A DNA stretch of 64,000 nucleotides, from assembly GCA_015143295.1 (NCBI GenBank), contig CM026551.1, positions 49,402,034 to 49,466,033 of the forward strand, read 5' to 3'. Shown piece after piece: positions 3,441 through 63,380 of this stretch. The notes below the pieces were generated by a model. It had not been told where the DNA came from, searched no databases, and saw only the letters and a program-made list of their open reading frames with translations. The DNA is from Tetracentron sinense (Eukaryota; Streptophyta; Magnoliopsida; Trochodendrales; Trochodendraceae). Each line of letters starts with the position of its first letter. Within the stretch, counting starts at the first letter, position 1. The translations under genes were made by a program, and so were the position numbers.

Positions 3441-4454
3441 TGAGATGTATATACGATTTTCCTTTTTCAAATCTTCACTTGAAGATTTAGATCTTAAAGT
3501 AGATTTAAGAACTACTAACCTTTATTTGCAAGCTACTCAAGTGCGTAGCCTACAATATTGATTCATGTCATTCCTCTCTTTGATTCTATATGCTCATCCA
3601 CATAGGACTATCAGCCTTCTCCATTGCTTAATGTATGCATTCAGCCCAAGGGATCACATATTTTTTCCTTTTCTTCATAAGCAAGGAAGAAGACTACAAA
3701 TAATGTAGAAAAATTTTATTACCGTCTTTTCTTTCAACTGGTGTTTTGACTCAAAACGATTGATTATAGAAAAACTTTCTAAAAAAAGTTGTAGGTCTCA
3801 AAAACATCTTCAAAATGGCAAACTGGCGGACCAAATTCAGAGTTACAATGACTAGACTTATGATTTGTACATTGAAACAATGTTGATTTTCTTTATAAAA
3901 AACAAGGCCGAAAATTTAATAGATAATTTGGGTTAGATGAATACTCTTATAATATTGATATCACATATAAATTGTGGAACAAGTCATAGAGAAAGTAAGA
4001 AACTAATAGCATGGGATCTCAAAGGATCTCAACCCTTGGATGTGAGAATAGAATTACAATTTTAATTTAATCCTTATGAGGTTTTCCTTTTACAAAAATC
4101 TCTTAGAGTTTCACATATTGCAATAATATCCATTAACACATTGCAACCCCAAATGTAGAGACTTATTAGAATAAAGCCCTTCAATCACAACTTGTTTGTA
4201 ATAAGATACCTTCCACTTAAGAATATTCATGCATTCCATATAAACCACTACAAATGGATTGGTGATCACTATCGATCTCTAGCTTATAAATTCATAATTT
4301 ATCATCTCATTAGACTTAGAGAAAATATATCAAAAACTCTTTTGATAAAATAATGTATTTTAATAATATATTACATAAAAATAATTTTGATAAACTCTTT
4401 TATCAAAACCACCATGCGTGGATTTATTGAGTCCGATCTTGATGATTAAATTAG
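3441..4454. other. Intergenic, nothing recognised
   Basis: AT-rich DNA without a convincing open frame, RNA gene or element end. It stops at the terminal inverted repeat that begins at 4455. Confidence 0.5.
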
Positions 4455-4714
4455 GGTGGTGTTACGCGCACCCCAACCTTTACTTAAAAACACCAATCTT
4501 CAAAAATAACCGAGTTAAACACCAAAAGTAAGTTGAACGAACAAAAACAAAACCCTTCTTGGAAATTGTCTTTCTTGTGGTTAGATTCCACCATCTCAAC
4601 CTTCATGAGTTCTTTTCGGAGACACCCCCCTCGTGATTCATGAAGATCTTCCAAAATCTCGTCGGTGTCTACTAACTTAAGAAATTCTGCCATCCTAAAC
4701 TGATTGAGATGCAG

Positions 4715-5076
4715 AGAGGTCAGTATGGAAAAATCCAAGTCAATGCGATCAAAAGCAGAGAGATGCAACAGATTTCCATCCTTGATGTCGTGGTTGGCGA
4801 TGTTGTGGATCAAGAGGGATGGCTGGGGATCGGTGATCGAGTTGCGGCTGATGGTTTGTTCATAAAAGGGAATTCTTTAGAACTAGACTTGGATCCTGAG
4901 ATAGCCAAGGAGAGCAGGGAAGTGGTTTCCATTGCTAGGATAACCCTTTTCTATTTGCACACTCCAAGGTTGTCCAAGGTGAAGCCCACATGCTCGTCAC
5001 ATCTGTGGGCTTAGATACTCTCTGAGGTGAGATATTGGGGTCGATGTCGAGGTAGCAACGAGCACAAGAAACCATT
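4715..5076 (+). pseudogene. Captured fragment of autoinhibited Ca2+-ATPase (actuator domain)
   Basis: The frame around 4730-4935 encodes 'MQQISILDVVVGDVV', then 'LGIGDRVAADGLFIKGNSLE'. This is the actuator-domain entry of P2B (ACA-type) calcium pumps, whose consensus here is QQISI.DVVVGDVV....IGDQVPADGLF..GHSL. The downstream position that should read TGES (the dephosphorylation motif) reads AKES. A different frame near 4955-5070 then gives 'KVVQGEAHMLVTSVGLDTL', a stop in place of the usual Trp, and 'GEILGSMSR', which matches the next conserved stretch of the family. The fragment is therefore out of frame and dead as a pump. It lies between Mutator-like TIRs and is cut by a solo LTR at 5077. 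Confidence 0.8.
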
Positions 5077-7713
5077 TGTAGAGACCCGAATTTTAATTTA
5101 TCGATAATTGTGTCATTCATATGATGTATGCAAAAATAAGAAAAATAAAAACAAAAAAGAAAAAGAAAAATGGAATAAAATAGTGGAGCCCACCATAGAC
5201 CTTCTTTTAATAAGTTCGAATTAGATTAGAATTATAACCAATAGATAATAGGAAGGGACCCACACAATCCTCTCTCTTTCTAATTATTAGAGAAGAAATC
5301 CTAAACTAATTGACAGGCTATTTTGAACTCGAATGACTTAAAATTGGGACATCTCTATTTCACAAGAAATTTTTTCCCTTTGAATAAGGTTTCCAACGTA
5401 TTTTGAAACATCCAATTCCGATAACCAAGTCAAAAGTTATGCTCAGATACCGGAGTAGGGTTTGAAGCGGGATTTTTCCAAAAAAACGCTAATTCCGAAC
5501 TTTTTTAATATTTTAGGGTCCCTAACTCTATAAATACCCCCTGTTTCGTGGATTTAGGGTTAGAAAAGTATTCTAAGACTTTTAGGAATTTCAAAGAGAG
5601 TTAAACCTAGGTTTTCTCAAGGGTTTTCATCTCAAGGAGAAGGGAAAGCTTAGAGATCGAGATCCAAGCTCTTCTCAAGCGAGGGATCGTAGGGAAACGG
5701 TCAAGGAAGGTACTATACAGTGTTCTAGCTAATTATTTTTATAAGATAAGTATTTTTAATATCTGGATGTTTTTATGTGTTATCATGGTTTGTATGAACA
5801 TGTTAAAAGTATGGGTTACATGATTTAAAGAGAGTTTGATGTTAAGATTTGGAAGAGAATGAATGATTATGTACTATGCATTGTTCTAGCTAATGGTTGT
5901 TATAAGATTAAGTATTTTCAAGACATGGATATGTGTTTATATATTATGCATTGTCAAACCTAATGATATCTCTAAGAGTTTGTATGAAATCAAGATCTAG
6001 GGTTGATTATGAGTTTATGTGTATTGAATAAACCTATTGTGATATTTTTCTTGTATAAATTGAAGAAAATTTCAAGGATGAGACGTAGAGTGAATGGATG
6101 TATGAATCTATATTTATGATTGAGAATGGAGGAAGGGATTGAATTATGGATCTATGGATTATTAAAGTAGGATGTGCATAACATGAGTATGATCTGAATA
6201 ACCCTGTTAATATTATATTTTTTCTTGAAACAAGAAGAATGAGAATAATCATGAAATTATGATGAATTATAAAGAATGCTAGAAATTGGTAATTTCTATT
6301 AATGCTATAAATTAACCTTGTCAATTATTAAATCTAATTTGTATATTGCGAATTATTCTTCATGTATGAGTAAGTTTTAATGTGATTCTTAAATGTTATT
6401 TATATGAAATTATGCATGTTTATTGATTGATTGAATTTCGGATAGGTGAATACTTAAAGGATGATATCAATGCTCTGAATCCCCTAACTTTAGTTATATG
6501 GGTGGCTTTGGTGGGATTCGGTGAATTGATATGGAACCTAAGAGATAACCTAAATGAAGGTTGATCATGACACGATTAAGCATAGTCTCATGTCATGATA
6601 ATTGATAAGTCCTCACAAGTTCACAAGTCATAAATCTGCATAAACTAACAAGAGTTGTAAGATCCTGGTTCAAGGACCTATATGAACATGTAAAAAGGTA
6701 TAACAAACATGACAACATGTGGTTATAAGGACTTGTATGAATATGAAAAAAGATATAACATGCACGGAAACATGTGATTGTAAGGACCTGTGTGAATATG
6801 GGAAAAGGTATAACAAGCATGGCAACATGTGATTGTAAGGACATGTATGAATATAGAAAAATGTATAACAAGCATGACAACATGTGGTTGTAAGGACCTG
6901 TATGGATATGAAAACTAGTATAACAAGTATGACAACATGTGGTTGTAAGGACTAGTATAACAAGCATGATAACATGTGATTGTAGGGACTAGTATAAGAA
7001 ACACGATAACATGTGGTTATAAGGACCAATCTAGCATGGTTATGTGCTACTTGTAAGAAACCTAGAAATAACTAACAAACATCTCATAAGTCTCACAAGT
7101 CCGCACAAATCAAGAGTCTGGTTATATGCTTTGCATGATGGTATGTTTATATGTTTTCTGCAATGAATTGTAAGATATGTCATTTATATTAAAGTATGAG
7201 CATTTAGATATATTATTGTATATTGTTAGCTAGACTTTGTATACGCTGCTGAGCTTTCATTTGCTCGGCCATACTTTTTATGTCAGTAGTTGCAAGAGGG
7301 TTTGATATTTGTGCTCCACCACCTTGGATAGAAGAGTACCCCAAAGAACAGGAAGGTGATTCCAGGAAGAGGAAGTCAATCTAGTTTACTTTCCCTATTA
7401 TTGAGTCTAGATGATTAGTGGTTTATTTCAATTTATTTAAGGGATGTAATAAGATATTTTCGAATTATATAGCTTAGATTTATTTTCAATCATTGATCAT
7501 GTTTAAGGATTGGGTTCACTTGGATATTTATTTATTGGTTAGACAGGTTGGATTGAATTATTGCAATTATCATTTGTGTTTGAGGTTAATGATTATGAGG
7601 AATTTTCAGGTTCGTTTTTTATGATGCTTTTAAATGTTCTTGAATAGATTAAGTCAAGTAAGTCACGTGCCAAAGTTCCACATTCTTCTTAGGGGGGATT
7701 TTGGGGCGTGGCA
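5077..7713 (+). mobile_element. Solo LTR, Ty3/gypsy type (Tekay/Del-like), copy 1
   Basis: It starts TGTAGAGACCCGAATTTT and ends TTGGGGCGTGGCA (TG...CA), with the 5-bp target duplication CCATT on both sides (5072-5076 and 7714-7718). A plus-strand TATA box (CTATAAATA, 5528-5536) sets the orientation. It is about 2.6 kb long with no internal coding region, so it is a solo LTR left by recombination. A related copy lies at 30819-33180. It inserted into the Ca2+-ATPase fragment of the Mutator-like element and is therefore younger than it. Family assignment rests only on the terminal sequences. Confidence 0.82.
6660..7030 (+). repeat. Minisatellite inside LTR copy 1
   Basis: The landmark 'acatgtg(a/g)ttgtaagg' recurs at about 6715, 6770, 6825, 6880 and 6935, a 55-bp period, followed by shorter units of about 38 bp. 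LTR copy 2 has the corresponding array at about 32300-32520 with the short unit only. Confidence 0.8.
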
Positions 7714-7755
7714 CCATTGCTAGACTAACTGGAAAAGCTCTCTTCCTGTTTAGGT
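7714..7755 (+). pseudogene. Rest of the captured Ca2+-ATPase fragment, beyond the LTR
   Basis: Immediately after the LTR and its CCATT duplication, one frame gives 'LEKLSSCLGG' after a stop. This resembles the conserved 'LNKLTSSIGK' segment that follows the TPLQ stretch in ACA pumps. The match is short, but its position is exactly where the family predicts it. The right TIR of the host element begins just after. Confidence 0.5.
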
Positions 7756-7858
7756 GGAAGAGGAGTTTTTGTCATTTCAACTTGTTTTTGGTGTTTAAAT
7801 CGGTGATTTTTTAAGATTGGTGTTTATAAGTAAAGGTTGGATTGCGTTTAGCACCACC

Positions 7859-8390
7859 TTTAAATCATCTAAAGGCATTCCTCCTTCGAGAGCAATTTAT
7901 TTTATAGAATGAGTAGTGAATTTCTTATTTGAGCATTTGCTCATCTTCATACACCATGTGCATAACCCAATGTACCCGTATATAGCCCGCAATCAAGCAC
8001 CATTGTTTAGTAACATCAAAGTCATACAGACAATGCATGAAAGGAAGCAAATCTCCCAGGTCTGAGAACAACATGCATGCTACAAAATTCTTTGCACAAT
8101 GCAGCAATAATCACTCTTATTAAACATAATAGTAATTTTTCTTCAAAATTCATGGATAGATCTATTAGTACTATGTAACCCATTACATGCACCTACATGT
8201 GTGTCTAATAGTCGTTATTCTCTATGATGGAGATACATTATACTATCCTATAGAGACATCACATGTATAGGTCATAGTGAAGTGTGATGTCCAACCAACA
8301 CCCATAGCCTAGACCATTTTAAGATTACTAAAGTGCCTTATCTTATATCCATGGTCTCAATCATGACTAGTAATGTCATTCAACAGTAGA
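7859..8390. other. Intergenic, nothing recognised
   Basis: No supported gene or repeat end. The open frame at 7925-8107 (minus) has no recognisable motif. Confidence 0.45.
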
Positions 8391-17533: not shown

Positions 17534-19678
17534 CTAATTTGAGGTGATGCACAAGGTCAAAGCAGGATGGCTTGAGGATGGTTCGGAGCCTGGTTTGGAC
17601 AGAATATGAAAAATATTAATTTAAAAAAAAATGAATATTAGAACTGAATTAATAAAGTGAAATAATAATATAAACTAACCTTCTAATTCAGTACGCAACC
17701 AATCTTGTGTGCATATCAAAGCTTGGACAGTATCTGGATTTAGAGAACTCCGAAAATGATCAAGTACTCTATCTCCAGTGTTGAATGCTGACTCCAATCC
17801 AATGGTTGACATTGGAATCCCCAAAACATCACGTGCCATCATGGATAAGATGGGATATCTTGGTGTTTGAACTTTCCACCAATTTAATATGTTAAAATCA
17901 ATATTACGAGGAAAGACAGGTTCCTCCAAATATTTATCCAGGTCTGACTTAATGCTCTGGCTTTGTGAAGTCTCGTGGAGGAACTTGTCAAACCCTCTCA
18001 GCCTATCCCTAGTGTCATTACTAACACTAGATACGCCACCAGCACTAAGCCCGCTACTACCTTGTACTTCCCAACCCAACCCTTGATCAAGCGAAGCTAA
18101 TGTTGAGCATATAGAATATTCGTTGTAAAGATCCTTAATACCATTGGAAACGGCGTTAATGCGATCTTGGGCACTATTACCATAAACCTGTGGGTAGTAA
18201 TATTCCACCAATTTCATCTTGAATCGTGGATCCAATATGGCTGCTATTGCTAAAATCAAACTGCAAGTGTTCCAATATTTATCAAACTTATTTTTCATCT
18301 TCAATGCCATAGAACTAATAAAAATATCTGAGCTCTTGCACCATTCAATCAATTGCAAGTGAATATCACAAATCTCGGGAAAATAAAGATTTGCAGTTCG
18401 ATATCTGCTACCTGAGAAAACACTAGTAACATCAAGGAAGAGCTTCAAATAGTTAGTAATGGCACTTGCCCTTTCCCACTCTAGATCGGATGGTACTATT
18501 GTGTAGGCAGAGTCATGTTCTTGCAAGAGGGAAAATGCACCCCTGTACTCCAAGGCAACTTCAAGCATGAGATATGTCGAGTTCCATCGCATTGGACAAT
18601 CAAGGCGTAAGTTCTTCTGACTATCCACTCCAGCTTGTTGAGCCATCTCATTGAACTTTTCTTGTGTTGCATGCGAACTTTTAACATACCTAACACTTTC
18701 TTGAATATTGGGGCTTACCTCACGTAGTGCTTCCAGCGCATCTTGAACAATCAATTTGAGAAAATGTGACGCACAGCGCACATCAAATAATTGACCATTA
18801 CTCAAAAGCAGCCTGTTTTGAGAGAGCCGATCTCTAATTCTAAAGACGATATTGTAGTTGGTGGAGCAATCATCAAATGTCAAGGCAAACAACTTACGGT
18901 CAATATCCCAATCCATCAGACACGTCATAATAACTTCTGAAAGTATGTCCTCCGTATGAGAAGGATTAACCATTACAAAATTCAGAATCTTCTTCTGTAA
19001 TTGCCAAGCCTGATCAATGTAGTGTGCTGTCAAACACAAGTATAAAGCATTTTCTGATGAAGCCCACATATCAGCAGTGATGCTAATTCTACCAGGCAAT
19101 TTATCCAACATCTCATACACTTTTTGTTTCTCTTTCACGTAGATTGCCATGCAATCAGCCTCGACACTGTTACATGTCATAACATCAAATAATGGCTGAA
19201 GATTCTTTACAAATACTTTGAATCCGACATGCTCAACCATAGCCAATGGGTAACCATGTAAGATAATCATGCGCGCAAGATCGACTCGACTCCGTTCCTG
19301 ATCGAACTTAAAATTTCCAAGGTTAATGGTTTCGTCTTTTCTGAGATCTTTTTCAAACTTAATATTTCCAACATTAATCAGTTCATCTTCTTTCTGCTCT
19401 TGATCAAACTTAAAATTTGTAAGGCTAAGAGTTCCCTCCTTTTTCCTTTCTCTTGCGGCAAGTAGCAGACTTACGTCATGATTAGATCTTTTTCGACACC
19501 TAATTAAATGATTTCTCAAATGTGACGTTCCACTAGTACTTGATCCACTGAGTTTCTTTTTGCAATGTTTACAAACAGCAACACAAACGTCACCCTTCTT
19601 AACCCTTTCAAAGTCATTCCATACAAGAGATGTCAATCTCTTTGGTTTTTTAATAGCAGACGGGCTTGATATTTCCAT
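17534..19678 (-). CDS. BED zinc-finger hAT-derived protein (RICESLEEPER/DAYSLEEPER type)
   Basis: Predicted 684-residue nuclear protein from two coding exons, 17680-19678 and 17534-17589. The unspliced frame stops at once inside the donor (GAAG|GTTAGT at 17680/17679). With the acceptor at 17590 (ACCAG|GCTCC), the C-terminus gains 17 residues. The ATG at 19678 is the first in the exon, whose acceptor (TTGCAG) is near 19703. A BED finger lies at about residues 14-65 (ligands C36, C39, H57, C61). Three copies of a 17-residue unit (like NFKFDQE) follow. The hAT core shows 'ITADMWASS' and 'TFDDCSTN'. The C-terminal dimerisation domain has WW, 'PILSMMARDVLGIP' and 'RSSLNPDTVQALICTQDWL'. The usual SE in 'STV.SESAFSTGGR' is LE, and GGR is GDR. 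An intact long frame, introns and the absence of element TIRs suggest a domesticated host gene; such proteins bind DNA and regulate transcription. Transposition activity is unlikely but not excluded. Confidence 0.88.
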
Positions 19679-19702
19679 CACGTGAACTTGATATTTACCA
19701 CT

Positions 19703-22700
19703 CTGCAATCACATAAACCAAATGCAAATATATCACTCTTAAGAAATAAAATTCCAAAAAGACATAAAAACAAAATGAATTTATTCAGAAAAACAAACGA
19801 TAATAACCCAGACAAAAAGTCCTAGAGTAATTAACTACGAAGTATGATCAACTATTGGACCTAAACCAGCTATGAAATGCATATATCAAAGTTATAGATT
19901 CTCTAAACCGAACCAAATCCACTCCCAGTAGTTTGTTAAAAAGAGGTAAAATCAACAGAATTATTATTTATACACAATTTCATAATGATGTATATTGAAA
20001 ATTCTGCCGTAAAGGAATTGTTTTATTCTGCCACAGATCAATTGATAGATTCTGCCGCAAATGAATTAGAATTTAGAACCTTTCTAATACTCCCTAACCA
20101 AACGAAAATTGGAGAATGGCTCATAAAAGACTATACCCAGGATAACAAATATTTGCTAAAATCTATACAGGGACAAAAATGACAAAGACAACATGCAAGT
20201 CCATTAAAGTGCAAAGCTGTCGTGTGAAGGTGATTTGAAAGAGAAAAAAAAACTGCAACACAAATGCAGTGTGCAATCTCAGAACCCATCATCAAAATGA
20301 TGAGTGGAACCATAGATCCATGGCATTCGCCTGAACGGTTCAAAAAGAACCATATAAATTCTCCTGACCTGCCAAAATATATAGTGATCAAGGTCCTAGG
20401 ATCAGGTCAAGTTTGGGCATTGAGGCCTGTTGGGTAGCACCCTTTAGGTAGGTGGTCCCACTTGTCTGCAGGGCCGCAGACCTTCTAGATCCTTGTATAT
20501 CCATCAAAATTGAATGCTTTGTTCTTATTTCAGCAGATAAAATTTTGAATCATCTGATCATACCACGTTAAAGGTTTTCCAGAAAGAAACGCAACTGCTT
20601 AAATTAGTCATGAATGCAACCCTATGTTCCCTGTCAATATTGAATCGGACGAAATTCCTGCTCCTCATACTGGTTGATTATCGCTCAAGAATTCTCTATG
20701 AATTTGCTAAAGAAGCAAATGTCACCTTCATTTATCACGAAACCATTGGAAAACATCAACTTCCTGAACCAGTCATGCCACTGCAAAGGGGCTTGCCTTT
20801 CTACAACACTTCAGGTCCCGCCGCTGCACCATCAAGCTGCAAGTGGAAAGAATGATCCTTGCAGCTATCTCCTCTTGTTGCTCTTCTGCTTGTAGGCCTG
20901 TAGCTACTGCAATACGCTCCTCTTGACTTGGGTTTGCTATTTGTTGCTCTGTATTGAGTTAGCTCTGTAGTTCTGTCTTTCTTGAGTTGCCAATGTATTA
21001 AAAGGATAATTTCAAAAATATCAAAGAAAATAAAGTAAATCAATTTCCCCACTTCTACTCTTATTCAACCCAAGAAAACCTTAGCCTATTAATATTCTGC
21101 TAATAACAAACTAACAAAGTGTCTAGGCCTCATCTAAATGGGTTACGTGCTCATGGCATACGCAGGATATTTTCAAAAATATCAACGAAAAATTATGTAA
21201 ATCAATTTCTGTAGTTCTAGTCTTATTCAACCCAAGAAAACCTTAGCCTACTAACACTCCTACTACCAGGTGTCTAGAACTCATCTAAATGGGTGACATA
21301 GTCTTGTCATACACATATCAGTTTTGACACATCTAATTCTAGTTGCACGCCTCTGGATTTTCTTTTCCTCTAATGTTAATTACACAACATAAATTGACAT
21401 GCATCATAGATAGGTGTGCTAGTTTATCACTTTATTCTTTAGAATGATGATAGGTGGTGAATACAACCAACACTATAACATTATTTTATGCCCTTATTTA
21501 TAAGTATAGACTATAGATATGCATCCTAAGATATCTAAGTTAACAATGCCCTAAAAAAATTAACTATTGCCAGAGACCTCGAATCTTATTTTTTAGGGGT
21601 CACCAAATCCAACACATCGCACAATATTATGTCAATCCTTTACCAAGAAGGTTCCAATCCAATGATACTGGTGTCTACATCCCAGGTTGTGTCTATCCCA
21701 CCACGTCCTGCACACATAGCCCTCTTTGACCACTAAATGAGACATAATTGAAGCAAGCTTTCAACCCTATACATAGCTTCCCTACAACTATAGGTTAATC
21801 TGTATCACAATCCATCAAAACAAATGGATGCCTATAAAGCTCATTAAAACTCAATAGTACTTCAAAAGAGGCTAAGTTGACTATCAAGTTACAAAGCTAA
21901 AGCAATTATCTTTTTTCAGTAAAGTTAAAACAATTATGATCTTGACAAGTAAGAGATATCAAGTCTTATAACCAAATAAACTCAAATGAGCAACTAGAAA
22001 TTTTAAAAATAGAACATAAATCAACCCCAACTTTAGATAACACTAAACAACCACATAATTGTATGCCTTTCAAGATTAAAACACAGGCATGCACACACAA
22101 ACACTGAAAAAAAAAAATTAACAAAATTTAAGTTGAATGGTTGTTGAACTTCAATCTAGGAATCCATGATTACCAAAAGTTGATCAATCTCGGCATCATT
22201 AGGGCTGTAAATCGTTCGAATGAGGTTCAACCCGGATCTGACCTGATAATAACCCAACCCTGAAAAACAAACCTAGAACCCCACCTCTCTCCCTGCCAAA
22301 GCTGGCATGCACACCCAAAGACCTTGTCAAAAGGGATTACAATTCGCCATTAACAGAGTACAGAGCCTGCCAGGATCTGGACTGGTTATTGTCAACCGGA
22401 TCCATCGGATTACCCCGGAATTAAGATCAAAAACTATACCTGATCCACGACGGGGTAACATGTTGGCGGGTCAAACCGACCCATTTACAGTCCCGTGCCA
22501 ACGGATCATAATCTCACAAGAACCACAAACAAATACCCAGAAGAACATTCGGATCCGGGGACTCAAGAACAAAATTACACAAACATTTTAATTACATAAA
22601 TCTGCTATCTACAGATTTAAACCGCCATTACCAGAAATTCAACATCGATGCTAAAATCACAAATTCGAATGATGAACTGACAAAGATCTTGAAAAGGGGA

Positions 22701-24797: not shown

Positions 24798-27700
24798 TGT
24801 GAGCGCGGGTTTTGGGAAAACCCTAATTAGATCTCACGGGGTGAGTTTAGAGTCGCCACCTATTCATTCAGAATAGATAAGTCCTCAGGATTTGGATAAG
24901 GTCTTGGTCTGTGATTGAGATTACGGTAAGAGGTTCGGTTAAGTCCGGGAAGGAGTTAAGCACCCCAGTACTTCCACTTTTCAGTGGTTCCCTACTTGTT
25001 AGGGTTAAACCAAATTAAGCTCAATTTTAATCAAATATCTTAGTGTTTAATGTAATGCTAATCCAAGAATGAGAAAATCCTAGACTATGGTCGAACTCGG
25101 GTTGGGCTGCCTACATACTCACATAGGAGTGAGATCAGACCGAGCGTAGTTTTGGCACATGAGCCCGTGCCAAGGCTAGAGATGTGTGTCTGCACCAATG
25201 GTGGCTTAGGGTCTAGCCGGGAGGCTAGGGGTGGTTGATCGAGTTGGTCAAGTGCTCGATATTAGGCCCGGTAGGCCAATGGGTAGTCTGGTAGACTAGG
25301 GTTTGGGTCCGGTAGTCCAAGAGTGAGCTCGGTAGGCTAGAGTTTGGGCCATGTAGGCTGAGATTTGGCCGGGTAGGCTAAGGGTGAGCCCGGTAGGCTA
25401 GGGTTTAGGCCTGGTAGGGCGAGATTGGGTCCGGTAAGCCAAGGGTGAGTCCGGTAGGCTAGGTTTTGGCCCTGTAGACCAAGATTAGGCCCGGTAGGCC
25501 AAAGGATGAGGCCCAGTAAGCTCAAAGTGTTTTAACCAAGGGTTAGGGTTGCTAACCGTGGTTAAAAATGTGATTAACCATGGTTAAGGGGGTTAACCAT
25601 GGTTAACAAGTCCAAATTCAGTATTTTTGGTCTTTTTGAATTTTTCTGATTTTTTTTAATTTTTTCCAGTGGTTAAAGATGCTTAACCGCGGTTAAGGGG
25701 GGAGGTCACCATGGTTAAGGGTCTTAACCAGGGTTAAATGGTATAGTGAGACCATTTTTGGGCTTCTAAAATTATTTTAGAAATTTTGATCATTTTTCCA
25801 GATTTTTTCTGGTTAAGGGTCGCTTAACCATGGTTAAAAATCAATCCGGATGGGGTTTTTAACTGTGGTTAAGGATCCTAACCACAATGAAAAAAATCAC
25901 AAAAAATATTTTTGGAATTCAGAGAATATTTTTGATATTTTAATGATTTTTCCAGAATTTTCTGAGGTCATGGGCTGTTTAACCATGGTTAAATATTAAC
26001 TACGAGTGGGTTTACCCGTGGTTAAGGGTCCGACTGAGGCAAAAATGGGCCCAGGGTCCATGGCAGGGCCTAGACTGGCCTCCTACCCGGTCCGGGCCCT
26101 CACAAAGTCCAGGAAATGTAAAGAAACCTCATATTTTATCCAAATTCTAACCATCATTAACGCGAGTTTAACCATGGTTAAGGGTGAATCCCGGGAATCC
26201 GAGAATACCAGAGGGTAGCCTGAAGAGTAATGAACAATTTGGACTCTTTTGGGGCCCAAGATGATGTCGTGTGTGGACCCCACATGGGTCTAAAGTCGGC
26301 CAAAAATGATCACATAAAATGATAGATTTTTAACAAAAAGACCCAAACAGTTTTTTGGTGATCTTTGCGGCGATTTTGTCGCGGTTTAGCTCAACCCCAG
26401 GGGGACCCGAGACCACCATTGCGAAGCTGAAAAAGAGGGGAACAATTTGAGCCTTCGTGGAGCCCAAGAGAAGTTCGAATGTGGCCCCACAGAGGTGCAA
26501 AGTTGCTCCGCCGCAACTGTTTTTCTGCATTGTCGACCCCACTTTGGGGTCGATTTTACCTGGGTTAACAGCGAATTCAAAGGCTGAAAATTTACAGGAG
26601 GGTTGCCCCATGTGTGGGGAGTCTACTCATGGCCCTGGTTTCGACCAGGGTCGAGACTAATCGGGGTTAAACCCGGGTTTACATGTGGCTGCCTGAAACC
26701 GCAATTTGCAGAATTTTTTTTTTCTTAAAAACAAACTTAGTTGCTATGATGTTTAACTCCTGAGAGTCCAGGGGGGTTCCTCATGGATTGAGGACCCCCC
26801 CAGACATCATGGAGTACCCCAAATGGTGGCATACGGTTGTGGGGGGTGGTGCCCGTGGCCACTGCCTCAAGGAAATACCCCCCCCCCGGTGAAGAAGGTA
26901 AAAGGGGGAGCTACTGTCCTCGGCTACTGATGTAATAGCAAAAAAAAAGATCAATATGGGACCCCTGGAATGGGACCAGGGGTCCCTTACATTAATGAAA
27001 TCAAGTTTTTCAAAAAAAAAAAAAAAAGCAAAAGAAGAAGGGGTATACCCTGTGTGGCTGTTACGGTGGTGAGAATGAGGGAGAGGACTTCGCTCGGTGG
27101 TGGCCACTTGTTGCAGGTCTTAGGGGACACCTAGGGATTACGGGAGGTGAGGTATGTGGTTGGGCTGGCTGAAGGGGAGCTCTCTCTTTCTCTCTGTATA
27201 TTTAAAATAAAAAAAAAAGGGTTGACACAGTGGCTGTGGTGGTGGTTGGCGGTAGTGCAAGGGGGTGCCTAGGGCAATCTAAAGCCTAGAGGGATGGAGG
27301 GAAAGGACTGAGGAAGGTTGTGTATGGCTGTGGATGATTGGACTGATTTTTTTTTTCAAAACTCTCCTCTCCAAACCGTGGAGAATGTGGGGCTACTTTC
27401 AGTGGTGGGTCGTGGACTGTTTCTTTTTTTGAAATTTTTTCCTCCCCAAACCCGTGAAGGTGAGGGGGATTAAATAGAAGAAGATGGAGGAGAAGGATAA
27501 GGATGACCGGCGTGGGGGATGAGGTAGGAGGGGCAAGGCGACAGGGGGCGTGGCAGGCAGCTGTACCCATAGCCAGCTGGGTGGGGAAGACGATGAACAG
27601 TCCCCACCCAGTTTGAACCCTTTTTCTTTTTTTTGGTTTTTAATTCCGGTTTTGGGCCTAGCCCTTATCCACATGGGCTACCACCCTGTTGGCTTTGCCA

Positions 27701-30818: not shown

Positions 30819-33180
30819 TGTTGAGATCCGAATTTAATTCCTCAGCATTCGTGTTGTTTATATAAATTCTTAGAAAAATATACCTGATTTTAATGCAAGT
30901 GTTCCTATGAGAATTCATGTAAAGTGCCTAGATGTAGAAACTCAAATATCTCGTTCGTTATTAGCCATTTTTATGATCTAATTACATGAAATTGAAGATA
31001 TCAAAAAATGGTGAGACTATGAGTTTTTCCTTATATAATAATAATAGTTATTAACTTATTATTATTATTAAATTAAAAGTATCGTGTCTACGGGGTTATT
31101 CTGTTGCATATAATAAGGTTAATATATTTATTTTCTAACTTCTAGGAGTCTAGAGTTCTAATCTTGGGTTTTCAGTACTAATCCAAAAGTATTGGGGTTC
31201 TCTCTTACATTCATCCAACTTAACGGGTCTTTTTAACCTCGCACACTTAAAACTGGGACATATCTATTAGAACAATAAATTGTTCCCCTTCGAATAACGT
31301 TTCCAACGCATCTTGAATCGTTCAATTCTGATAACTGAGTCAAAAGTTACGGTTCAAATACTGGAGCTGGGTTTTGAGAACGGAATTTTTTTCAGAAAAC
31401 ACTGATTCCGATTTTTTAATATTTTAGGATTCTAAACTCTATAAATAGACCTTAAACTCGTGGGTTTTATGTCTTTTATCATTCTAAAACTTATTAGAAA
31501 AAGAGGGAAAGAAAAACTTAGGGTTTTCAACTAAAGAAGAAGAGGAGAGCTTGGAGATTTTATCCAAGACAATTCTCAAACGAGGGATCGTAGGGAAATG
31601 ATCGAGGAATGTACTATACATTGTCTAACCTAATAATATCTCTAAGAGTTTGTATGAAATTAAGATTTAGGGATGTTTATGTGTTTATATGAATTTAATA
31701 AACATATTGTGATGTTTTCTTGCATGATTTGAAGAGAATTTCAAGGATAAGACCTAGAATGAATGGATGTATGATTTATATGCTTATGATTGAGAACGGA
31801 GGAAGGGATTGAATTTTGGATTCATTAGTTATTAAAGTAAGATGTGAATAACCCTGTTAATATTGTGATTTATGCTTGAAATAAGAAGAATGGGAATAAT
31901 CATAAAATTATGATGAATTATCGACAATGTTAGAGATCAATAATTTATATTGATGCTACGATTTAACCTTGTCAATTGTTAAACCTTATTTTATATTGTG
32001 AATTATTCTTTATGTATGAATAAGATTATGATGTGGTTCCCTTATGTTTTTGATATGAAATTTTACATGTATACTGATTGATTAAACTTCGGATAGAGGA
32101 ATACTTAGAGGATGATATCAAGGCCCCGAATTCGTTAACTTTAGTTATATGGGTGGCTTTGGTGGGATTCGATGATTTGATATCGGAACCTAAGGGATAA
32201 CCTAGATGAATGTTAATTATTACACAATCAAGCACAAGTTTCACGGTATAATAATTGATAAGTCCTCTTAAGTTACAAGTCATGAGTCTGCATAAATTAA
32301 CAAGACTTGTAAGACCCTAGTTGCGATGACCAGATATGGAAACATGTAGTTGTAAGAATGGTATAACAAGTATGACAACTTGTGGTAATAAGAATGGTAT
32401 AACAAGCATGGAAACAAGTGGTGATAAGAGTGGTATAACAAGCATGGAAACAAATGGTAATAAGACTGGTATAACAAACATGACAACATGTGGTTACAAT
32501 GACCGCTCTAGAATGGCTTTATGCTACTCACAAGAACCTAGAAAGAAATAATAAGTATCTCATAAATCTCACAAGTCCACACATGTCAAGAGTCTGATTA
32601 TATGCTTTACATGATGGTATGTTTCATATTTTCCATACATGAATTGTAAGATATGTTATTTATGCTAAAGTATGAGCATGTGGATATGTTATTGTTATTG
32701 TTAGCTAGACTTTGTATACACTGAGCTTTCGTTTGCTCAGTCGTACTTTTTATGTCGGTAGTTTCAGGAGGGTTCGACACCTATACTCCACCATCTTGGA
32801 TAGAGGAGGAGTATACAGAAGAGTGGGAATGTGATTTCCAGGAAGAGTAAGTCAATATGGATTAGTTTCCCTATTATTGAGTCTAGATGATTAGTTGTTT
32901 ATTTTAGTTTATTTTAGAGGATGTGATAAGACAAATTTCAGATTATATTATTTAGCTTTATTTTCAATCATTGATCATGATTAAGGATCGGGTTCACTTG
33001 GATATTTATTTATTGGTCAAACAGGTTGGATTTAATTGTTGGAATTATTATTTATGATAAATGAGAAATTTCCAGGTTCAAAATTAGTATGTCTTGTATG
33101 TTTTAAGGATAAGGATTGGATATGTAGTGTCACGGGTCCAAAGTCTCATTATGACCAAGATAGGAATTTGGGGCGTGACA
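30819..33180 (+). mobile_element. Solo LTR, Ty3/gypsy type (Tekay/Del-like), copy 2
   Basis: It starts TGTTGAGATCCGAATTT and ends TTTGGGGCGTGACA, flanked by the perfect duplication AATTG (30814-30818, 33181-33185). TATA box CTATAAATA at 31439-31447. It is similar to 5077-7713 along its length but about 275 bp shorter, largely because its minisatellite (32300-32520) uses a 38-bp unit instead of 55 bp. No coding inside. Confidence 0.85.
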
Positions 33181-42841: not shown

Positions 42842-44038
42842 GGTGCCGTTTGGATATACTTCCATTTTTTTGTTTTTATTTTTTGTTTTTAAAAATTGGA
42901 AACGACTTTTTGTTTTCAATTTTTTTTAAGTAGGAAACATGGTATTACTAAAGGTTACTTATTTTTAAAAAAGAAAAACAAAAAAATGTATTTGATAAAT
43001 ATGATTAAATAATTTCAATTCATGGTGGTGGTAGTGGTGAGTGGTGGCGGTAGGTGTAGTGTGGTGGTGTGTGGTGGTGGGTGGTGGTGGTGGTGTGGTA
43101 GTGGTAGTGGTTGTATTGTGGTGGTGGGTGGTGGTGGTGGTGGTGGCGGCGACGGTGGCGCTGGAGGTGGAGGTGGTGGTGGGTGGTGGATGGTGGTAGT
43201 ATTATGGTGGTGGTGGTGGTGGTGGTAGGTGGCGGTGGAGGTGGAGGTGGGTGGTTGGTGATGGTGTGGTGGTGGTGGTGGGTGGTGGTGGTGGTGGTGG
43301 TGGTGGTGGTGGGGGGTGGGGGTGGTGGTTGTATTGTGGTGGTGGTGGTGGTGGTGGTGGTGGTGGTGGCGGTGGTGGTGGTGGTGGGTGGTTGTGTAGT
43401 GGTAGTGGTGGTGGTTGTGGTGATGGTGGTGGTTGTATTGTGGTGGTGGCGGTGGCGGTGGAGGTGGAGGTGGTGGTGGGTGGTGTGGTTGTGGTGGTGG
43501 TGGTGGATGGTGGTAGTATTATGGTGGTGGTGGTGGTGGTGGTGGTGGTGGTGGGTGGTGGATGGTGGATGGTGGATGGTGGGTGGTGGTGTAGTGGTAG
43601 TGGTGGTGGTGGGTGGGGGCGGTGGTTGTATTGTGGTGGTGGGTGGCAGTGACAGTGGAGGTGGTGGTGGGTGGTGAGTGGTGAGTGGTGAGTGGTGGTG
43701 GTGTGGTGGTGGTGGTGGATGGTGGTCGTATTATGGTGGTGGTGGATGGCAGTGGCGGTTGAGGTGGGTGGTGGTGATGATGGTAGTATTGTGGTGATGC
43801 AGTGGTTGTTGTGCGTTGTAGTGTTGATGGTGGGTCGGTGTTTTCCATTTTTGTTTTTTGTTTTCAAAAATAGAGGTAGAAGAAAATTTTTGTTACCTTG
43901 ATTTTAAAAAATTTTGTTATTAATTTTTAAAAACAGAAAACATAAACATGTTTACGAAACATGTTTTGTGTAAAAATTTTCAAAATTTTGTTTTTGAAAA
44001 CAAAAAAACAAAAAACGGAAGTGCAACCAAACGGGGCC
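42842..44038. mobile_element. Tourist-like MITE expanded by a GTG repeat
   Basis: Left TIR GGTGCCGTTTGGATATACTTCC; right TIR in reverse GGCCCCGTTTGGTTGCACTTCC. The target duplication TTA (42839-42841, 44039-44041) is that of PIF/Harbinger elements. Subterminal parts are 'tttttgtttttaaaaa'-type. The centre is the GTG array 43022-43830, so the original MITE was probably only about 390 bp. Confidence 0.82.
43022..43830 (+). repeat. (GTG)n trinucleotide array, about 800 bp
   Basis: Mostly GTG/GGT with GTA, GAG and GCG variants. Open frames on both strands (Gly/Val/Trp or His/Pro/Thr homopolymers) are artefacts of the repeat. Higher-order units are visible: 'gtggtggttgtattgtggtg' recurs at about 43105, 43325, 43430 and 43622, and 'gatggtggtagtattatgg' at 43190, 43507 and, with change, 43719. 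Confidence 0.97.
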
Positions 44039-45869: not shown

Positions 45870-47008
45870 GTCCGTTTGTAATTATTTTATTTTTTTTGAT
45901 AATCTTTTATATACCTTTTTAGCTCATAATATTTTTTAGTTGTAACTGATTTTTGCCAAAACCAATTATGCTCCCCCAGGGCCGAGCCTGGATTTTCTAG
46001 CGTGGGGGCACACAATTGTTGATTGAAAATGGTAATAATTATTGATAGATTTGTGAACAATTATTTGGTGGGTATGGAATATTCTGGGTCTAAGGGATTA
46101 GGGAGCATAGCCCCCAAAATTTTTTTTGATGACTAAGTTCTTTAGTCATTCCATCCCTACATTTCGTATATATCTTATGAGTATTATTTCTCCTTATTTA
46201 CGATACAATTGTCTCCTTAGCGAGATGAAAGAGTTAACCACAGTTAATAGAAATTAAAAGGGACACGTGTTATTTGGTGCGATTGAACTCTCTCCAAGTT
46301 CAATCGCGATTGACTGTAATTCTATTATCTAAATAGATAGATGAGGGTAGTTTGGAAATTAAAGTAAAATATTAAATCAAAGTTTTGTTTTATATAAGGG
46401 TAGTTTAGGAATTTTGTAAAATTCAGGCTACGCCAGACTCTCTCTTTATAATAGTAAAGATATGTCCGGTTAAATAATTAAATAAAATGATATAAAAGAT
46501 ATATTGTCTTTTCAAAAGTTCAGGGGATAGGTGTTCCCTTGCCTCATGGTTATGTCATATTAAATAATTAAATAATATAATATAATATGATATTTTAGGG
46601 GATAAGCTCCTTGTCCATAATTATGCACACTTAACTAATTAATCAACTTAGTATAAAATATATTTTTTATTTAAAGTTTAAGAGTTGAGATCATAGTCAA
46701 TTGTGTTAAATTCGGGAGAGTTCAGTTGCACCCACAGGTCAACACATGTCCTTTTTAACTCTGGCTAATTATGATTAGATTCATTAAACCTTAGGGTTCA
46801 ACAATCTACCTTGGTTTAAAAATATATATATTTAGAAAATATTAACCCTCCACTTCAATTCCCACCCCTATTGTGAGTGCAATCCAAATTTCAATCACAA
46901 TTGGACAAACTCGAACTCAAAGCTCAAGTAGCCCTAGCCTCCATTCCTAGTGATTGAATCACAAGTCAATTGTGATTGAACTCTGGGAGAGTTCAATCAC
47001 ACCCACAA
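45870..47008. repeat. Mixed repeat region: hAT-like fragment and foldback arms
   Basis: 45978-46110 ('cagggccgagcctggatttt...catagcccccaaaa') belongs to the 11204/33450 group. Foldback arms with 'gtt(a)aaaagggacacgtg' and a flanking 'gattgaactctcggagagttcaat'-type hairpin appear at 46240-46320, 46690-46860 and 46940-47005. No gene. Confidence 0.45.
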
Positions 47009-47224
47009 CCAACACGTATCCCTTTTAATCATTATTAACTATGGTTAAGATCACTAACCATTGGGATTCAATAATATAACATGGTTTTTAGAAAAAAAAC
47101 ATTTAAACTTTAAGAGTTTTAAGCCCATGAGATAATATTTTATCAAACAAACCAAGGTTATATTATTGAATCTCAGGTTGATGAATTTTAACCACAATTA
47201 ATATAAGTTAAAAGGGACACTTGT
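47009..47224. repeat. Complete foldback MITE of the TTAACC/GGTTAA family
   Basis: Left arm 'caacacgtatcccttttaat', 'aactatggttaagatcacta'; right arm 'gatgaattttaaccacaatt', 'gttaaaagggacacttg'. It is flanked on both sides by 'attgaactc...gagtt(t)caat' hairpins, which seem to be the outermost part of a longer form. Confidence 0.65.
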
Positions 47225-47309
47225 TTTGCCTGTGATGTTTTATTGAACTCTCCCTGAGTTTCAATTGCTAACTCTCAGTGGGTCCCAGCGCAGAACCTTT
47301 TTTAGGCTC

Positions 47310-47590: not shown

Positions 47591-47617
47591 ACCTTTTTTA
47601 GGAGTCAAATCCTCTAC

Positions 47618-47965
47618 GTGATAGCCGGATTTGGCAAATCCGCACCTCCCTAAGTCGCCACGCATCTCCTTGACACCCCTTAACTGTGGGTAGGTTCATT
47701 CACCCACCCCCAAGAGGGGTCACCCCCCATTTTTGGTTTTTTTTTTTTTAAATATTTTCTTTTTTTAACTTTAAAAACTGTTTTAGAGTTTTTTAATATT
47801 AAAACAAGTTTTTTAATTTTTAAAAAAGAAATTAATTTTAAAACAAAAAAACCAAAAATGGGTGGTGAACCTAGAGGTGGGTGAACCTTACCACGGTTAA
47901 GGGGTGTCAAAAGAGACACGTGGTGACCTCAGGGGTGAACACCGGTTTTGCCAATCCGGTTATCA
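47618..47965. repeat. Long foldback element, TTAACC family with CCGG outer arms
   Basis: Arms are about 110 bp: 'gatagccggatttggcaaat', 'ttgacaccccttaactgtgg', 'gttcattcacccac', with inverse 'gggtgaacctta(c)cacggtta' and 'gtgtcaaaagagacacgtgg' on the other side, then 'ccggttttgccaatccgg'. T-rich centre. Confidence 0.65.
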
Positions 47966-48027
47966 CCGGATATGATTTGGCTCTTTTTTTTTTATCATTA
48001 ATTTTTTTGCACCTATTCCTCTCAGTT

Positions 48028-49884: not shown

Positions 49885-49984
49885 NNNNNNNNNNNNNNNN
49901 NNNNNNNNNNNNNNNNNNNNNNNNNNNNNNNNNNNNNNNNNNNNNNNNNNNNNNNNNNNNNNNNNNNNNNNNNNNNNNNNNNNN
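49885..49984. other. Assembly gap (100 N)
   Basis: Exactly 100 N, the customary size for a gap of unknown length. It cuts the Ogre-type element that follows; its remaining interior and second LTR are not visible to the left of the gap. Confidence 0.99.
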
Positions 49985-53306: not shown

Positions 53307-56300
53307 TGTGAGCGCGGGTTTCGGGGGAACCCTGGCTTGCATCTCACGGGTTGAGTTAAGAGTCGCCACCTATTCATTTGGAAGGGATAAGTCCCCGAGA
53401 TTTGGATAAGGTCTTGGTCTGTGATCAGAGATTAGGGTAAGAGGTTCGGTTAAGTCCGGGGAAGGGGTTAGGCACCCCGGCACTTCCACTTTCAGTGGTT
53501 CCCTACTTGCTAGGGTTAAGCCAAATTAATCTCAGATTTAATCAAATGCCTTAAGTATTTAAGATAATGCTAATCTAAGAAGGAGAAAATCCTAGACTAG
53601 AGTCGAACCCAGGTTGGGCTGCCTACGTACTCACATAGGGGTGAGATCAGACCGAGCGTAGTTCTGGCACATGAGCCCGTGCCAAGGCTAGGGGTGTGTG
53701 TGTGTGTGTACCAAGGGTGGCTTAGGGTCTAGCCGGGAGGCTAGGGGTGGGTTGACCGGGTTGGTCAAGTGCTTGGTATTGGGCCGGTAGGCCTAAGGTA
53801 AGTCCGATAGACTTAGGTTGGGCCCGGTAGGCCAAGGGTGAAGCCCGGTAGGCTAGTTTGGGCCCGGTAGGCCGAGATTGGGCCCGGTAGGCCAAGGGTG
53901 AGCCCAGTAGGCTAGGGTTTGGCCCGGTAGGTCGAGATTAGGCCCGGTAGGCCAAGGGGTGAGGCCCGGTAGGCCCAAGGTGTCTTAACCGAGGGTTAGG
54001 GTTGCTAACCGGGGTTAAGAAAGGTGATTAACCTTGGTTAGGGGTGCTAACCATGGTTAAAAAAGTCCAATATCAGATTTTTTTGGTCTTTTGAATTTTT
54101 CTGATTTTTTTTGGGATTTTCTCAGATTTTTCGCAGCGGTCAAAGGTGCTTAACCGCGGTTAAGGAGGGCGGTCACCATGGTTAAGGGTCTTAACCATGG
54201 TTAAATGGTCAAAAGAGACCATTTTTGGGTTTCTCCTAATATTTTGGATTTTTTGAACATTTTTTCCAGATTTTTTCCGGGTCAGGATTCTTTTACTCGT
54301 GGTTAAGGGTCCAAAATGGGGTCGACTCTGATTAAGTGTCTTAACCACAGTAAAAAATACAATTGAAGACATTTTCTGGATTCCATGTAATATTTATGAT
54401 TTTTTGATGATTTTTTTAGAATTTTTGCTAGATCATGGACCGCTTAACCATGGTTAAATGTTAACCACGGGTGAGTTTAACCTATGGTTAAGGGGCCGAC
54501 TGAAGCAAAAGTGGGCCCAAGGTCCATGGCAGGGCCTAGACTGGCCTCCTACCCGGTTTGGGCCCCCTCAAATATCCGAAATTGCAAAAAATTCTAAATT
54601 TTCATCAAATTTTTAACCATAGTTAACATGAATTTAACTATGGTTAACGGGGGAATCACGGGAATCCGAGACCACCAGTGGGTAGCCTGATATGTGGGGA
54701 ACGATTTGGGCCCTTGTGAAGCCCAAGGGGAGGCCGTATGTGGGCCCCACAGAGGCCCAAAGTCGCCCCAAAAAACACCACATAAAATGACGATTTCCAC
54801 AAAAACCGATTTTTTTTCCAAACTTTGCGGCAATTTTACCGCTGATTGGCTCTACCCCTGGGGGATCCGAGACCACGTTCGTGAAGCATACTATGAGGGA
54901 AACAATTTGGGCCCTTGTGGGGCCCAAGGGGAGGCCGGATGTGGGCCCCACAGAGGCCCAAAGTTGCTCCATCGCACAGATTTTCACACTGTCGACCCCA
55001 CTTTGGGGTCGATTTAACTATGGTTAGAATGAGAGTTAGGGGCTGAAAATTTACAGGGGGGGTAGCCCTACATATGGGGAGTCTAACCATGTCCTCGGTT
55101 TCGACCAGGGCCGGGGCTAACCATGGTTAAACCGTGGTCACAGGGAGTGTCAGAAACTGATTTTTTTTGAAAATTTTTTGCAAAAAACTTTTTGGTGGCT
55201 AGGCGTGCTTGGCCCATGTGAGTCTAGGGGGATCACTCATTGATTGAGGACCCCCTCAGACCTCCGGGAGTGGTCGCCATGGTGTGGGGTGGTGGTGTCC
55301 GTGGCTACGCATCAAAGGGAGACCTCCTTGCCAAACGGTTTGGAACTACCCCAAAATAAAATAAAAAATAAAAAAATGGCAAAATGGGACCCTGGAATGG
55401 GACCAGGGGTCCCTTACAAGGGCAGTGACAGCAAATAAAAAAATAGGGGAGTATATGTATACCCTGTGGCTATAGTGGCCGCGCGGTGATGGCGAGGTTG
55501 TGGTAGTGCTACGAGGTTGTGGCGATGCGACGAGGCAGTGGCGATGCGACGAGGCCGTGGCGATGCTACGAGGCCGTGGTGAGCAAAGGATGGGGTGTGA
55601 CGGCTGGGATGAGGGGAAACAGTAACTGTAACAGATTTTTTTCTTAAAAAAAAAACCTCAATACGGTGGCTTCAGTGGTGGAAGGGAGTGTCTAGGGGAT
55701 TTGGGTGAAGTGTTGGGAGACTGGGCTCCCTTCTTAGGTGAAGAGGGATGTATAAGGATGGGCTAACAAGTTTTTTTCTTTCCCAAAAACCTCCCCTCAC
55801 AGTAGCTAACGTTGTGATTTTTTATAGAAGAATGGAAGGAGATAAGGTGGATAAGGATGAGGATAGGATCAAGGCGCATGGGGGACAAGCCTGGAGAGGC
55901 CAGGTGGTCAGGGGAGATCCGGGCAGGAAGAAATCGGGAGGGACTGTACTCCCATCCTTACGACAGGGACGATGAACAGTCCCCTAAAAACAGACTTTTT
56001 TTTCTTTTTTTTTTTTTTTTTTTTGTTCCGGTTCTTGTGGGTTCGGTTATGTGAGTTGGGCCCAACCCACATATGGGCCCTGCCACATGGGGTTGGTGCC
56101 CAATCACACCCCAAATTTTTTTTTTTTATTTATCTTTTTTTTTTTTTTTTTGTTTTTCTTTTCTTTGGAAAAAAAAACTCTTTTTTTTTCTTGTTTTTTT
56201 TTTAGACTTAAAAAAAACCTCTTTTTTTTTTGTTGTTTTTTTTTTTTAGATTTAAAAAAAACCTTTTTTTTTTAGACTTTAAAAAACCTTTTTTTTTAGA

Positions 56301-61383: not shown

Positions 61384-61464
61384 CACCCTTATCTTTCAAT
61401 TTTCTCATAACGCCCCTTTCCTTCTTCTACTTCTCTCATTCTTGCTTCTTACTTACTAGCTCTA

Positions 61465-63380
61465 ATGGCTGGTGAGCTTAAGAAATTATGGGTGCTACTG
61501 TCACTGCGTGTGCTGTTGTCGGTGTCGGGCTCGTGGTCTGGGGTTCGAGCCCAGACCCAAGCCCAAGTTCCTTGCTACTTCGTCTTTGGAGACTCCTTGG
61601 TCGATAATGGCAATAATAATGCAATTTCTTCCTTGGCTAAAGCCAATTACCGGCCTTACGGTATTGACTTCCCCAGAGGACCTACTGGGAGGTTTTGCAA
61701 TGGTCGCACTACAGCCGATGTCTTTGGTGAGTTCCATACATCTCTCTCTTATTCATCCACGGGCCAAAATTGGGCCTCATCAAAACCCCTTTTTTTTTTT
61801 TACCAGTAATCAAACATAAATATAATAAAAAAGATAGCAAGGATACTGGAAAAGAACAAATGCACAAAGCAGAGTTTATAAGCAAATAAACTCAGCACAC
61901 CAAGAAAAACATCAAATTCCTGACTTCTAGCCTAAGAAGAACCCCGGCCCTCCCAAACTGAATTTAGTCCAACACTTCCCGAAGCTCCTTCCTTTTTGAG
62001 TTTAGGCTCGCCCACGCCAAAGCAACCAACTGAATCTTAGCACAGATACGGAATTGAGAAAAGGAAGAATCTTCAAACACTCCATGATTCCTCTTTATTT
62101 TAAAGAAGTACATTTGTTATATGATTAGATCATGATCATCTGATTGAGATGATCATTCTTTGGCAAGCTGCGACTTTGAAGGCGTCCAATCGATTAAACA
62201 AAGCGATTGATATCCATTTGTATCATAAGTATATATAAACAATAGGAAATCTATGTCATTTTTAGATTTATTTATATATCACCTAAAGTCTATTACACTG
62301 CTACTCTTATAATTATCAAACATTCCCTTGCTAATCAAACATATTACTAATGTGCAGCTCAACTTTTGGGTTTCGATAATTTCATTCCACCTTATGCAAC
62401 GACAAGAGGCCAAGATGTACTCAAAGGCGTGAATTACGCATCGGCTGCTGCTGGTATAAGAGATGAAACTGGGCAGCAATTGGTAATTAATTAACCTCGC
62501 TTTCGCTAATCATAGTGGTCCTTCTTGTGGGTCGGATTAGTTCTTATATATTTTACCTTCTCACAGGGTGCTCGGTTAGTATGAACAGGCAGCTAAGGAA
62601 TTACAAAAATACGGTATCACAAATTGTAAACATACTAGGTGATGAGAATTCGGCAGCAGATTATCTAAGCAAGTGCATCTATTCGGTTGGAATGGGTAGT
62701 AATGACTACCTTAACAACTACTTCATGCCCCAGATTTACTCAACAAGCTGCCGTTACACCCCAGAACAATACGCCGACGTTCTTATTAAACAATATTCAA
62801 AGCAATTAAGGGTCCGTAATATTATTTTTTTCATATATATATATATATATAGTATTAGTATCTGTTAGTGGGTTAAGGCCTAGCATTTTGAAGCTTGGTA
62901 AAGGGTGGCAAGACAACCAATTTAATGCACCCCTCTGGATTGGATCCTAGAACCTACCCCAAGAGGGGGAGATACACTACCACTGGGACAAGCCCACGGT
63001 GTATCCAGAATAGCTTGTTGTACATGATAATGATAATGAGGCTTTTGTGTTTAACTATTTGCACCTCTAATTATAAACCAATTAAGTTAAAATTAGTTGG
63101 TTTTCTGCTGTTTCTTGATTCTAGACTTGGTACAAATATGGAGCAAGGAAGGTGGTCCTGATAGGAGTGAGTCAGATAGGGTGCAGCCCAAGCGAATTGG
63201 CTCAGTTTAGCCCCAACGGCACTGCCTGTGTAGAGAGAATCAACAGAGCAAACCAGCTTTTCAATATCAGGCTTAAATCTCTCGTCGACAATTTCAACAA
63301 AAATCTAGCAGACGCCAAATTTATCTACGTGAATGCTTACGGGATTTTTCAGGATCTATTGGAAAATCCTTCATCTTTTG
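61465..63380 (+). CDS. GDSL esterase/lipase, 3'-partial, with an apparent frameshift
   Basis: Secreted SGNH-fold hydrolase. Exons: 61465-61726, 62358-62482, 62567-62811, 63125-63380; donors are GTGAGT, GTAATT, GTCCGT (weak) and GTAGAT. A signal peptide (about residues 1-30) precedes block I 'FVFGDSLVDNGNNN' with nucleophile S44. Block II is 'VNYASAAAGIRDETG', block III 'VGMGSNDYLNNYF'; 'ARKVVLIGVSQIGCSPSEL' lies in exon 4. The last exon, with 'CCG.GR', the catalytic D..H and the C-terminus, is not seen before 64000. Oddity: exon 2 ends in phase 0, but exon 3 is open only one base out of step. In phase, 'GGTGCTCGGTTAGTATGA' hits a stop; adding one base after CGG would give the family's G-A-R-I-S-M. 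Either one base is missing in the assembly or the gene is a young pseudogene. Exons otherwise look well conserved. Substrate unknown. Confidence 0.85.
61789..62070 (-). repeat. Possible 3' end of a LINE inserted in intron 1
   Basis: On the minus strand a GC-richer stretch (62060 to 61920) leads to an A-run at 61801-61790 (seen as T on the plus strand), as for a reverse-transcribed insertion. No target duplication was found, and no domain is long enough to be certain. Confidence 0.35.
62880..63005 (-). repeat. SINE-related sequence in intron 3 of the GDSL gene
   Basis: In reverse orientation it reads 'gggcttgtcccagtggtagt', the box A head of the SINE at 57643, followed by 'ggtaggttctaggatccaat' at the box B position. 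Ends and target duplication are not clear. Confidence 0.5.

What the first reader, a model, noticed from the sequence alone, without database searches (positions are those of the whole stretch)
4455..7858. Three-layer nest: Ca2+-ATPase fragment, captured by a Mutator-like element, then split by a solo LTR
Seen: about 100-bp TIRs, ACA-type actuator-domain motifs between them, and a TG...CA LTR with CCATT duplication that interrupts the ATPase reading exactly where family order predicts the next segment. Known: Pack-MULEs carry host gene pieces between long TIRs. Inference: order of events is capture, transposition, then LTR insertion and LTR-LTR recombination. The captured piece covers the TGES dephosphorylation region (here AKES).
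Basis: partly seen in the sequence, partly recalled or inferred. Interest (0 to 1): 0.72.

Follow-up and report, generated by a model that had tools for sequence, protein, structure and literature searches.

The report
Decayed calcium-pump fragment in nested transposons
A plant DNA transposon with long inverted ends carries a decayed piece of a calcium-pump gene that was later split by a retrotransposon leftover, which is ordinary plant genome archaeology rather than a new kind of element.

Summary
A 3.4-kb unit (4454-7858) has inverted repeats of about 95 bp (82% identity). Between them lies a decayed fragment of a P2B (PMCA/ACA-type) Ca2+-ATPase (TIGR01517, E 2.9e-9 and 6e-4 in two frames), covering the actuator domain, with AKES in place of TGES. 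A 2637-bp TG...CA solo LTR with a CCATT duplication splits it. A second solo LTR of the family lies at 30819-33180 with its own AATTG duplication. All three ATPase pieces score better with the recalled ACA13 than with ACA8, and no intron is seen, so an intron-less ACA12/13-like parent is likely. No ATPase homology was found elsewhere in the window. Flanks match 7 of 9 (about 2% by chance): Pack-MULE is the best filing, unproven. The window's genome could not be searched (tool unreachable), so parent gene and LTR-free copies are unknown and the order of events is inference. Most likely no present function. A new example of a well-known kind; low interest.

The parts
4445..4453 (.). left candidate 9-bp target-site duplication ATTAAATTA
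   Evidence: 7 of 9 match with 7859-7867; a best-of-12-offsets match this good occurs in 2.2% of 20000 random pairs from the window
4454..4548 (+). left terminal inverted repeat (GGGTGGTG...)
   Evidence: 82.4% over 108 columns with 7765-7869, E 2.6e-26
4568..4664 (+). possible 5' continuation of the ATPase fragment (end of M2 and linker; domain names recalled), heavily frameshifted
   Evidence: weak: 11 of 300 shuffles reach the score at frameshift cost 12, 0 of 300 at cost 8; 10 of 160 window tiles reach it at cost 12
4733..4941 (+). P2B Ca2+-ATPase actuator-domain fragment, first frame; AKES where ACA8 has TGES
4942..5052 (+). ATPase fragment, next frame, one internal stop
   Evidence: TIGR01517 E 6e-4, ACA8 301-336 E 0.02, tblastn with recalled ACA13
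5072..5076 (.). CCATT target-site duplication, left copy
   Evidence: sequence
5077..7713 (+). solo LTR, TG...CA, TATAAATA near 5530 (seen by eye), tandem repeats of 55 and 37 bp at 6646-7036
   Evidence: 5-bp duplication; no second LTR copy within it; same-family solo LTR at 30819-33180
7714..7718 (.). CCATT target-site duplication, right copy
   Evidence: sequence
7714..7773 (+). ATPase fragment probably resumes, one stop; reaches the right TIR (overlaps its inner edge by 9 bases)
   Evidence: 1 of 5000 shuffles against recalled ACA13; not significant against ACA8 or PMCA2; no NCBIfam or PDB hit
7765..7858 (-). right terminal inverted repeat (...CACCACC)
7859..7867 (.). right candidate target-site duplication TTTAAATCA

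Best explanation
A non-autonomous TIR transposon of the Pack-MULE type. It picked up the actuator-domain coding region of an intron-less ACA12/13-like plasma-membrane Ca2+-ATPase gene and inserted here. It decayed by frameshifts, stops and small indels without selection for coding. An LTR retrotransposon inserted into the captured piece at CCATT, and recombination between its two LTRs left one solo LTR. Shown: TIRs, ATPase homology between them, the solo LTR with its duplication. Likely: the ATPase resuming after the LTR, an ACA12/13-like parent. Inferred: the superfamily, capture followed by transposition as a unit, the order of events, LTR-LTR recombination. No present function is expected: no open frame spans the fragment and the phosphatase motif is altered.
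For: TIRs E 2.6e-26. ATPase E 2.9e-9 and 6e-4, collinear on ACA8 237-336. ATPase across the LTR: 1 of 5000 shuffles; with the sites joined, the real right flank scores 87 and 0 of 100 shuffled right flanks reach it (max 75). No ATPase found outside the TIRs. GC 0.47 in 4701-5076 against 0.30 and 0.36 in the flanks. 9-bp flank match with 2 mismatches, within the limit used in PMC3310237 (9-10 bp, at most 2 mismatches; passages seen). All 3 of 3 pieces score higher with recalled ACA13 than with ACA8: 118/103, 83/76, 41/22. ACA12/13 are intron-less in Arabidopsis (PMC5920303, passage); GmACA12/13 have one exon in soybean (PMC9161174, passage).
Against: The flank match is imperfect and about 2% by chance; an 8-bp offset matches 7 of 8 and TTA/TTA fits too. 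No second copy of the TIRs in the window at E 0.01, and no MULE transposase or parent gene was seen. The clean TIR (95 bp) is just under the 100 bp that PMC3310237 asked for its TIR library (passage). The left part 4568-4664 is weak.
Confidence: 0.78

Rival explanations
1. A Pack-PIF/Harbinger, Pack-hAT or other TIR element carrying the ATPase piece, not a MULE.
For: TTA at 4451-4453 and 7860-7862; an 8-bp offset (4446-4453 and 7860-7867) matches 7 of 8, 0.8% by chance. PMC8903248 reports Pack-TYPE elements in several TIR superfamilies, hAT with 8-nt and most PIF with TTA/TAA duplications (passages).
Against: TIRs of about 95 bp fit MULEs (typically 100-500 bp, PMC3310237, passage); the 9-bp match is within the limit used there.
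Confidence: 0.17
2. A local ACA pseudogene flanked by two independent inverted insertions, not captured.
For: TIR copies could insert separately; a short inverted match GATGATT lies outside both TIRs.
Against: No ATPase homology outside the TIRs by tblastn of recalled ACA13 or by motif scan; the homology reaches the inner edge of the right TIR.
Confidence: 0.07
3. The LTR was already in an ACA pseudogene before capture, so the nest formed in another order.
For: Nothing here dates the LTR relative to capture.
Against: It needs capture of a piece of about 3 kb including an LTR; the simpler order needs no such step (inference).
Confidence: 0.1
4. The captured piece is kept because it regulates a parent ACA gene through small RNAs.
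For: A potential to regulate parental genes is named for such captured fragments in PMC3310237 (passage).
Against: 35% and 43% protein identity to recalled ACA13 suggests little DNA match to a parent, though the host's own parent gene was not seen; a 2.6-kb LTR splits the piece.
Confidence: 0.03

Closest known systems
Pack-MULEs (e.g. PM-ZIBP of tomato, PMC3310237, passages seen)
   Same: Long TIRs, a host gene fragment between them, AT-rich flank duplication
   Different: Flank duplication imperfect, interior split by a solo LTR, copy number unknown
Plant P2B Ca2+-ATPases, cluster ACA12/ACA13
   Same: Collinear actuator-domain sequence, no intron seen
   Different: Only about 128 residues, two frameshifts and two stops within them, AKES in place of TGES
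Solo LTRs of plant LTR retrotransposons
   Same: TG...CA, 5-bp duplication, no internal region found; a second one of the family in the window
   Different: Family not named here; 2.6 kb with 55- and 37-bp tandem repeats inside

Membership tests
Pack-MULE | long terminal inverted repeats | tested here: met
   about 95 bp, 82.4% over 108 columns. PMC3310237 used at least 50 bp in one step, and at least 100 bp with 80% in its library step (passages); 95 bp is just under the latter
Pack-MULE | 9-11 bp target-site duplication | tested here: inconclusive
   7 of 9 match, 2.2% by chance; TTA or 7 of 8 fit too
Pack-MULE | host gene fragment between the TIRs | tested here: met
   TIGR01517 E 2.9e-9 and 6e-4
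Pack-MULE | homology to the gene stops at the TIRs | tested here: met
   tblastn of recalled ACA13 over the window and motif scan. The profile scan of the flanks did not run
Pack-MULE | parent gene elsewhere, further copies of the TIR family, related autonomous MULE | not testable with these tools
   The genome search not answered
Solo LTR | single TG...CA LTR bounded by a 5-bp duplication | tested here: met
   5077-7713, CCATT; second example 30819-33180, AATTG
Solo LTR | no second LTR copy between the duplications | tested here: met
   only tandem repeats and short matches inside
Solo LTR | no internal protein-coding region | not tested
   no profile scan of 5077-7713 was run; the only frame of 130 aa or more inside is an antisense frame over the tandem repeats
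P2B Ca2+-ATPase, ACA12/13 cluster | closer to ACA12/13 than to other ACAs | tested here: inconclusive
   3 of 3 pieces score higher with recalled ACA13 than with ACA8; the other ACA clusters were not compared and no tree was made
P2B Ca2+-ATPase, ACA12/13 cluster | intron-less gene | tested here: inconclusive
   no intron within the matched stretch; a single exon or a reverse-transcribed copy would look alike

The most novel reading that the evidence does not exclude
The decayed ACA piece, transcribed from a TIR or from the inserted LTR, still yields small RNAs that tune Ca2+-pump genes of the host.
Probability: 0.02. Interest if true: 0.5.

Novelty: new member of a known kind. Interest (0 to 1): 0.12.

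Why it matters
It is a clear example of gene-fragment capture followed by a nested insertion and LTR loss, and adds one instance to known patterns. It matters mainly for annotation: the ATPase piece should not be called a gene.

Tried and rejected
Rejected: a second captured gene in the 130-aa antisense frame 4484-4876; no Pfam hit at E up to 1, and no NCBIfam hit at E up to 10 for its last 69 residues. Set aside: IARLTGK as the reading of the right piece; it scores best against ACA8 340-379 (24, not significant), but the other frame scores 41 against recalled ACA13 and 22 against ACA8 at the collinear place. Led nowhere: paper search for TIR letters with 'mutator' and 'tir' (0 papers); Pack-MULE with Ca2+-ATPase (0 papers in this open library; nothing is claimed about print in general); ends of the hAT element near 17.7-19.7 kb (one poly-A match only); tRNA and Rfam scans of the window (0 hits each).

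Left part, told in full: one search ran two frameshift costs. Only the lower one puts 4549-4732 above all 300 shuffles; at the higher one 11 of 300 shuffles and 10 of 160 window tiles reach it. The three best of 65 tiled ACA13 stretches start at residues 196, 211 and 181, around the expected place, but the first two reach past residue 223, where the next block already begins. One search shows a competing match of 4549-4760 that runs over the same residues in another frame. So the left extension is a lead only.

LTR ends: the global alignment of the two LTRs places the first bases of LTR 1 at about 30933 instead of 30819. The 30819 start rests on TG, the AATTG duplication and a by-eye match of 15 of the first 17 bases.

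Full report
What is there. The inverted arms 4441-4548 and 7765-7869 are 82.4% identical over 108 columns, E 2.6e-26 within the window. Clean ends are GGGTGGTG at 4454/4455 and CACCACC at 7858. No other copy of the TIRs is in the window at E up to 0.01.

ATPase. The frame 4712-5011 matches the PMCA-type Ca2+-ATPase model TIGR01517 at E 2.9e-9, profile positions 155-203. It matches ACA8 (8qmp) at 237-292, E 1.7e-4, then PMCA2 (8.8e-4) and PMCA1 (0.021); the other 6 of 9 PDB matches are unrelated, at E 0.85 or worse. Pfam E1-E2_ATPase is below its cut-off (17.2 against 28.1 bits). After a frameshift, 4942-5052 matches TIGR01517 221-253, E 6e-4, and ACA8 301-336, E 0.02, so the order is collinear. 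tblastn with a recalled ACA13 gives the same two blocks at 35% and 43% identity, E 1.3e-13; its 9 other hits in 64 kb are at E 1.9 to 9.6.

LTR. 5077-7713 is a 2637-bp TG...CA unit between two CCATT copies. Its relative at 30819-33180 (2362 bp) is also a lone LTR, with AATTG on both sides; 1657 of 2177 aligned positions are identical. Two independent duplications support the ends, but blastn aligns only LTR positions 242-2499, and the global alignment places the 5' end differently.

Across the LTR. The right piece, in frame from its own CCATT copy, reads PLLD*LEKLSSCLGGRGVFV. It fits the next segment of recalled ACA13 with score 41, reached by 1 of 5000 shuffles and 3 of 2204 window tiles, the tiles lying elsewhere. 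With the sites joined, real sequence scores 87 against at most 75 in 100 shuffles of the right flank. Results against: no NCBIfam or PDB match at E up to 10, not listed by tblastn, and no significance against ACA8 or PMCA2 segments (139 and 555 of 2000 shuffles).

Left part. 4549-4732 gives a frameshifted match (4568-4664) to the ACA13 stretch just upstream, with significance that depends on the frameshift cost: 11 of 300 shuffles or 0 of 300; 10 of 160 window tiles reach the score at the higher cost. The best of 65 ACA13 tiles lie around the expected place, but two of the three reach into residues already covered by the next block. If true, the ATPase piece fills the element nearly from TIR to TIR, with about 65 extra bases at 4665-4732. 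This is a lead.

Parent. No intron is seen within the matched stretch. ACA12 and ACA13 are described as intron-less in Arabidopsis (PMC5920303, passage); in soybean GmACA12 and GmACA13 have one exon, GmACA8 38 and GmACA10 42 (PMC9161174, passage). All 3 of 3 pieces score higher with recalled ACA13 than with ACA8 (118/103, 83/76, 41/22). An ACA12/13-like parent is likely; other ACA clusters were not compared.

Kind of element. Flanks ATTAAATTA and TTTAAATCA match 7 of 9; a match this good at any of 12 offsets occurs in 2.2% of 20000 random pairs. PMC3310237 (passages) accepted 9-10 bp with at most 2 mismatches and gives MULE TIRs as typically 100-500 bp. An 8-bp offset with 7 of 8 (0.8% by chance) and TTA on both sides also fit hAT or PIF/Harbinger duplications (PMC8903248, passages). 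Pack-MULE is the best filing, not a proof. [quoted passage not shown]

Limits. The source genome could not be searched: seven identical requests did not complete. The order of events is therefore inference. That the host is a plant is itself inferred from the ATPase and transposon types, not from a record.

Noticed in passing
30819-33180: Second solo LTR of the same family, 2362 bp, with an AATTG duplication on both sides.
   Followed up: yes
17675-19708 (minus strand): Open frame of 677 aa, stop to stop, with BED zinc finger, hAT RNase-H-like and hAT dimerisation domains; perhaps an intact or domesticated hAT transposase. No convincing element ends found.
   Followed up: partly
24798-26991 and 53307-55418: Direct duplication of about 2.2 kb at 76% identity.
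   Followed up: no
61411-61806 (plus strand): Start of a GDSL-lipase-like protein (Pfam E 0.0011, below its cut-off).
   Followed up: no
43015-43903: Long simple repeat giving spurious Pro/His/Thr-rich open frames.
   Followed up: no
47602-47983 and 46975-47265: Self-complementary stretches, foldback- or MITE-like.
   Followed up: no
49885-49984: Run of 100 N, an assembly gap.
   Followed up: no
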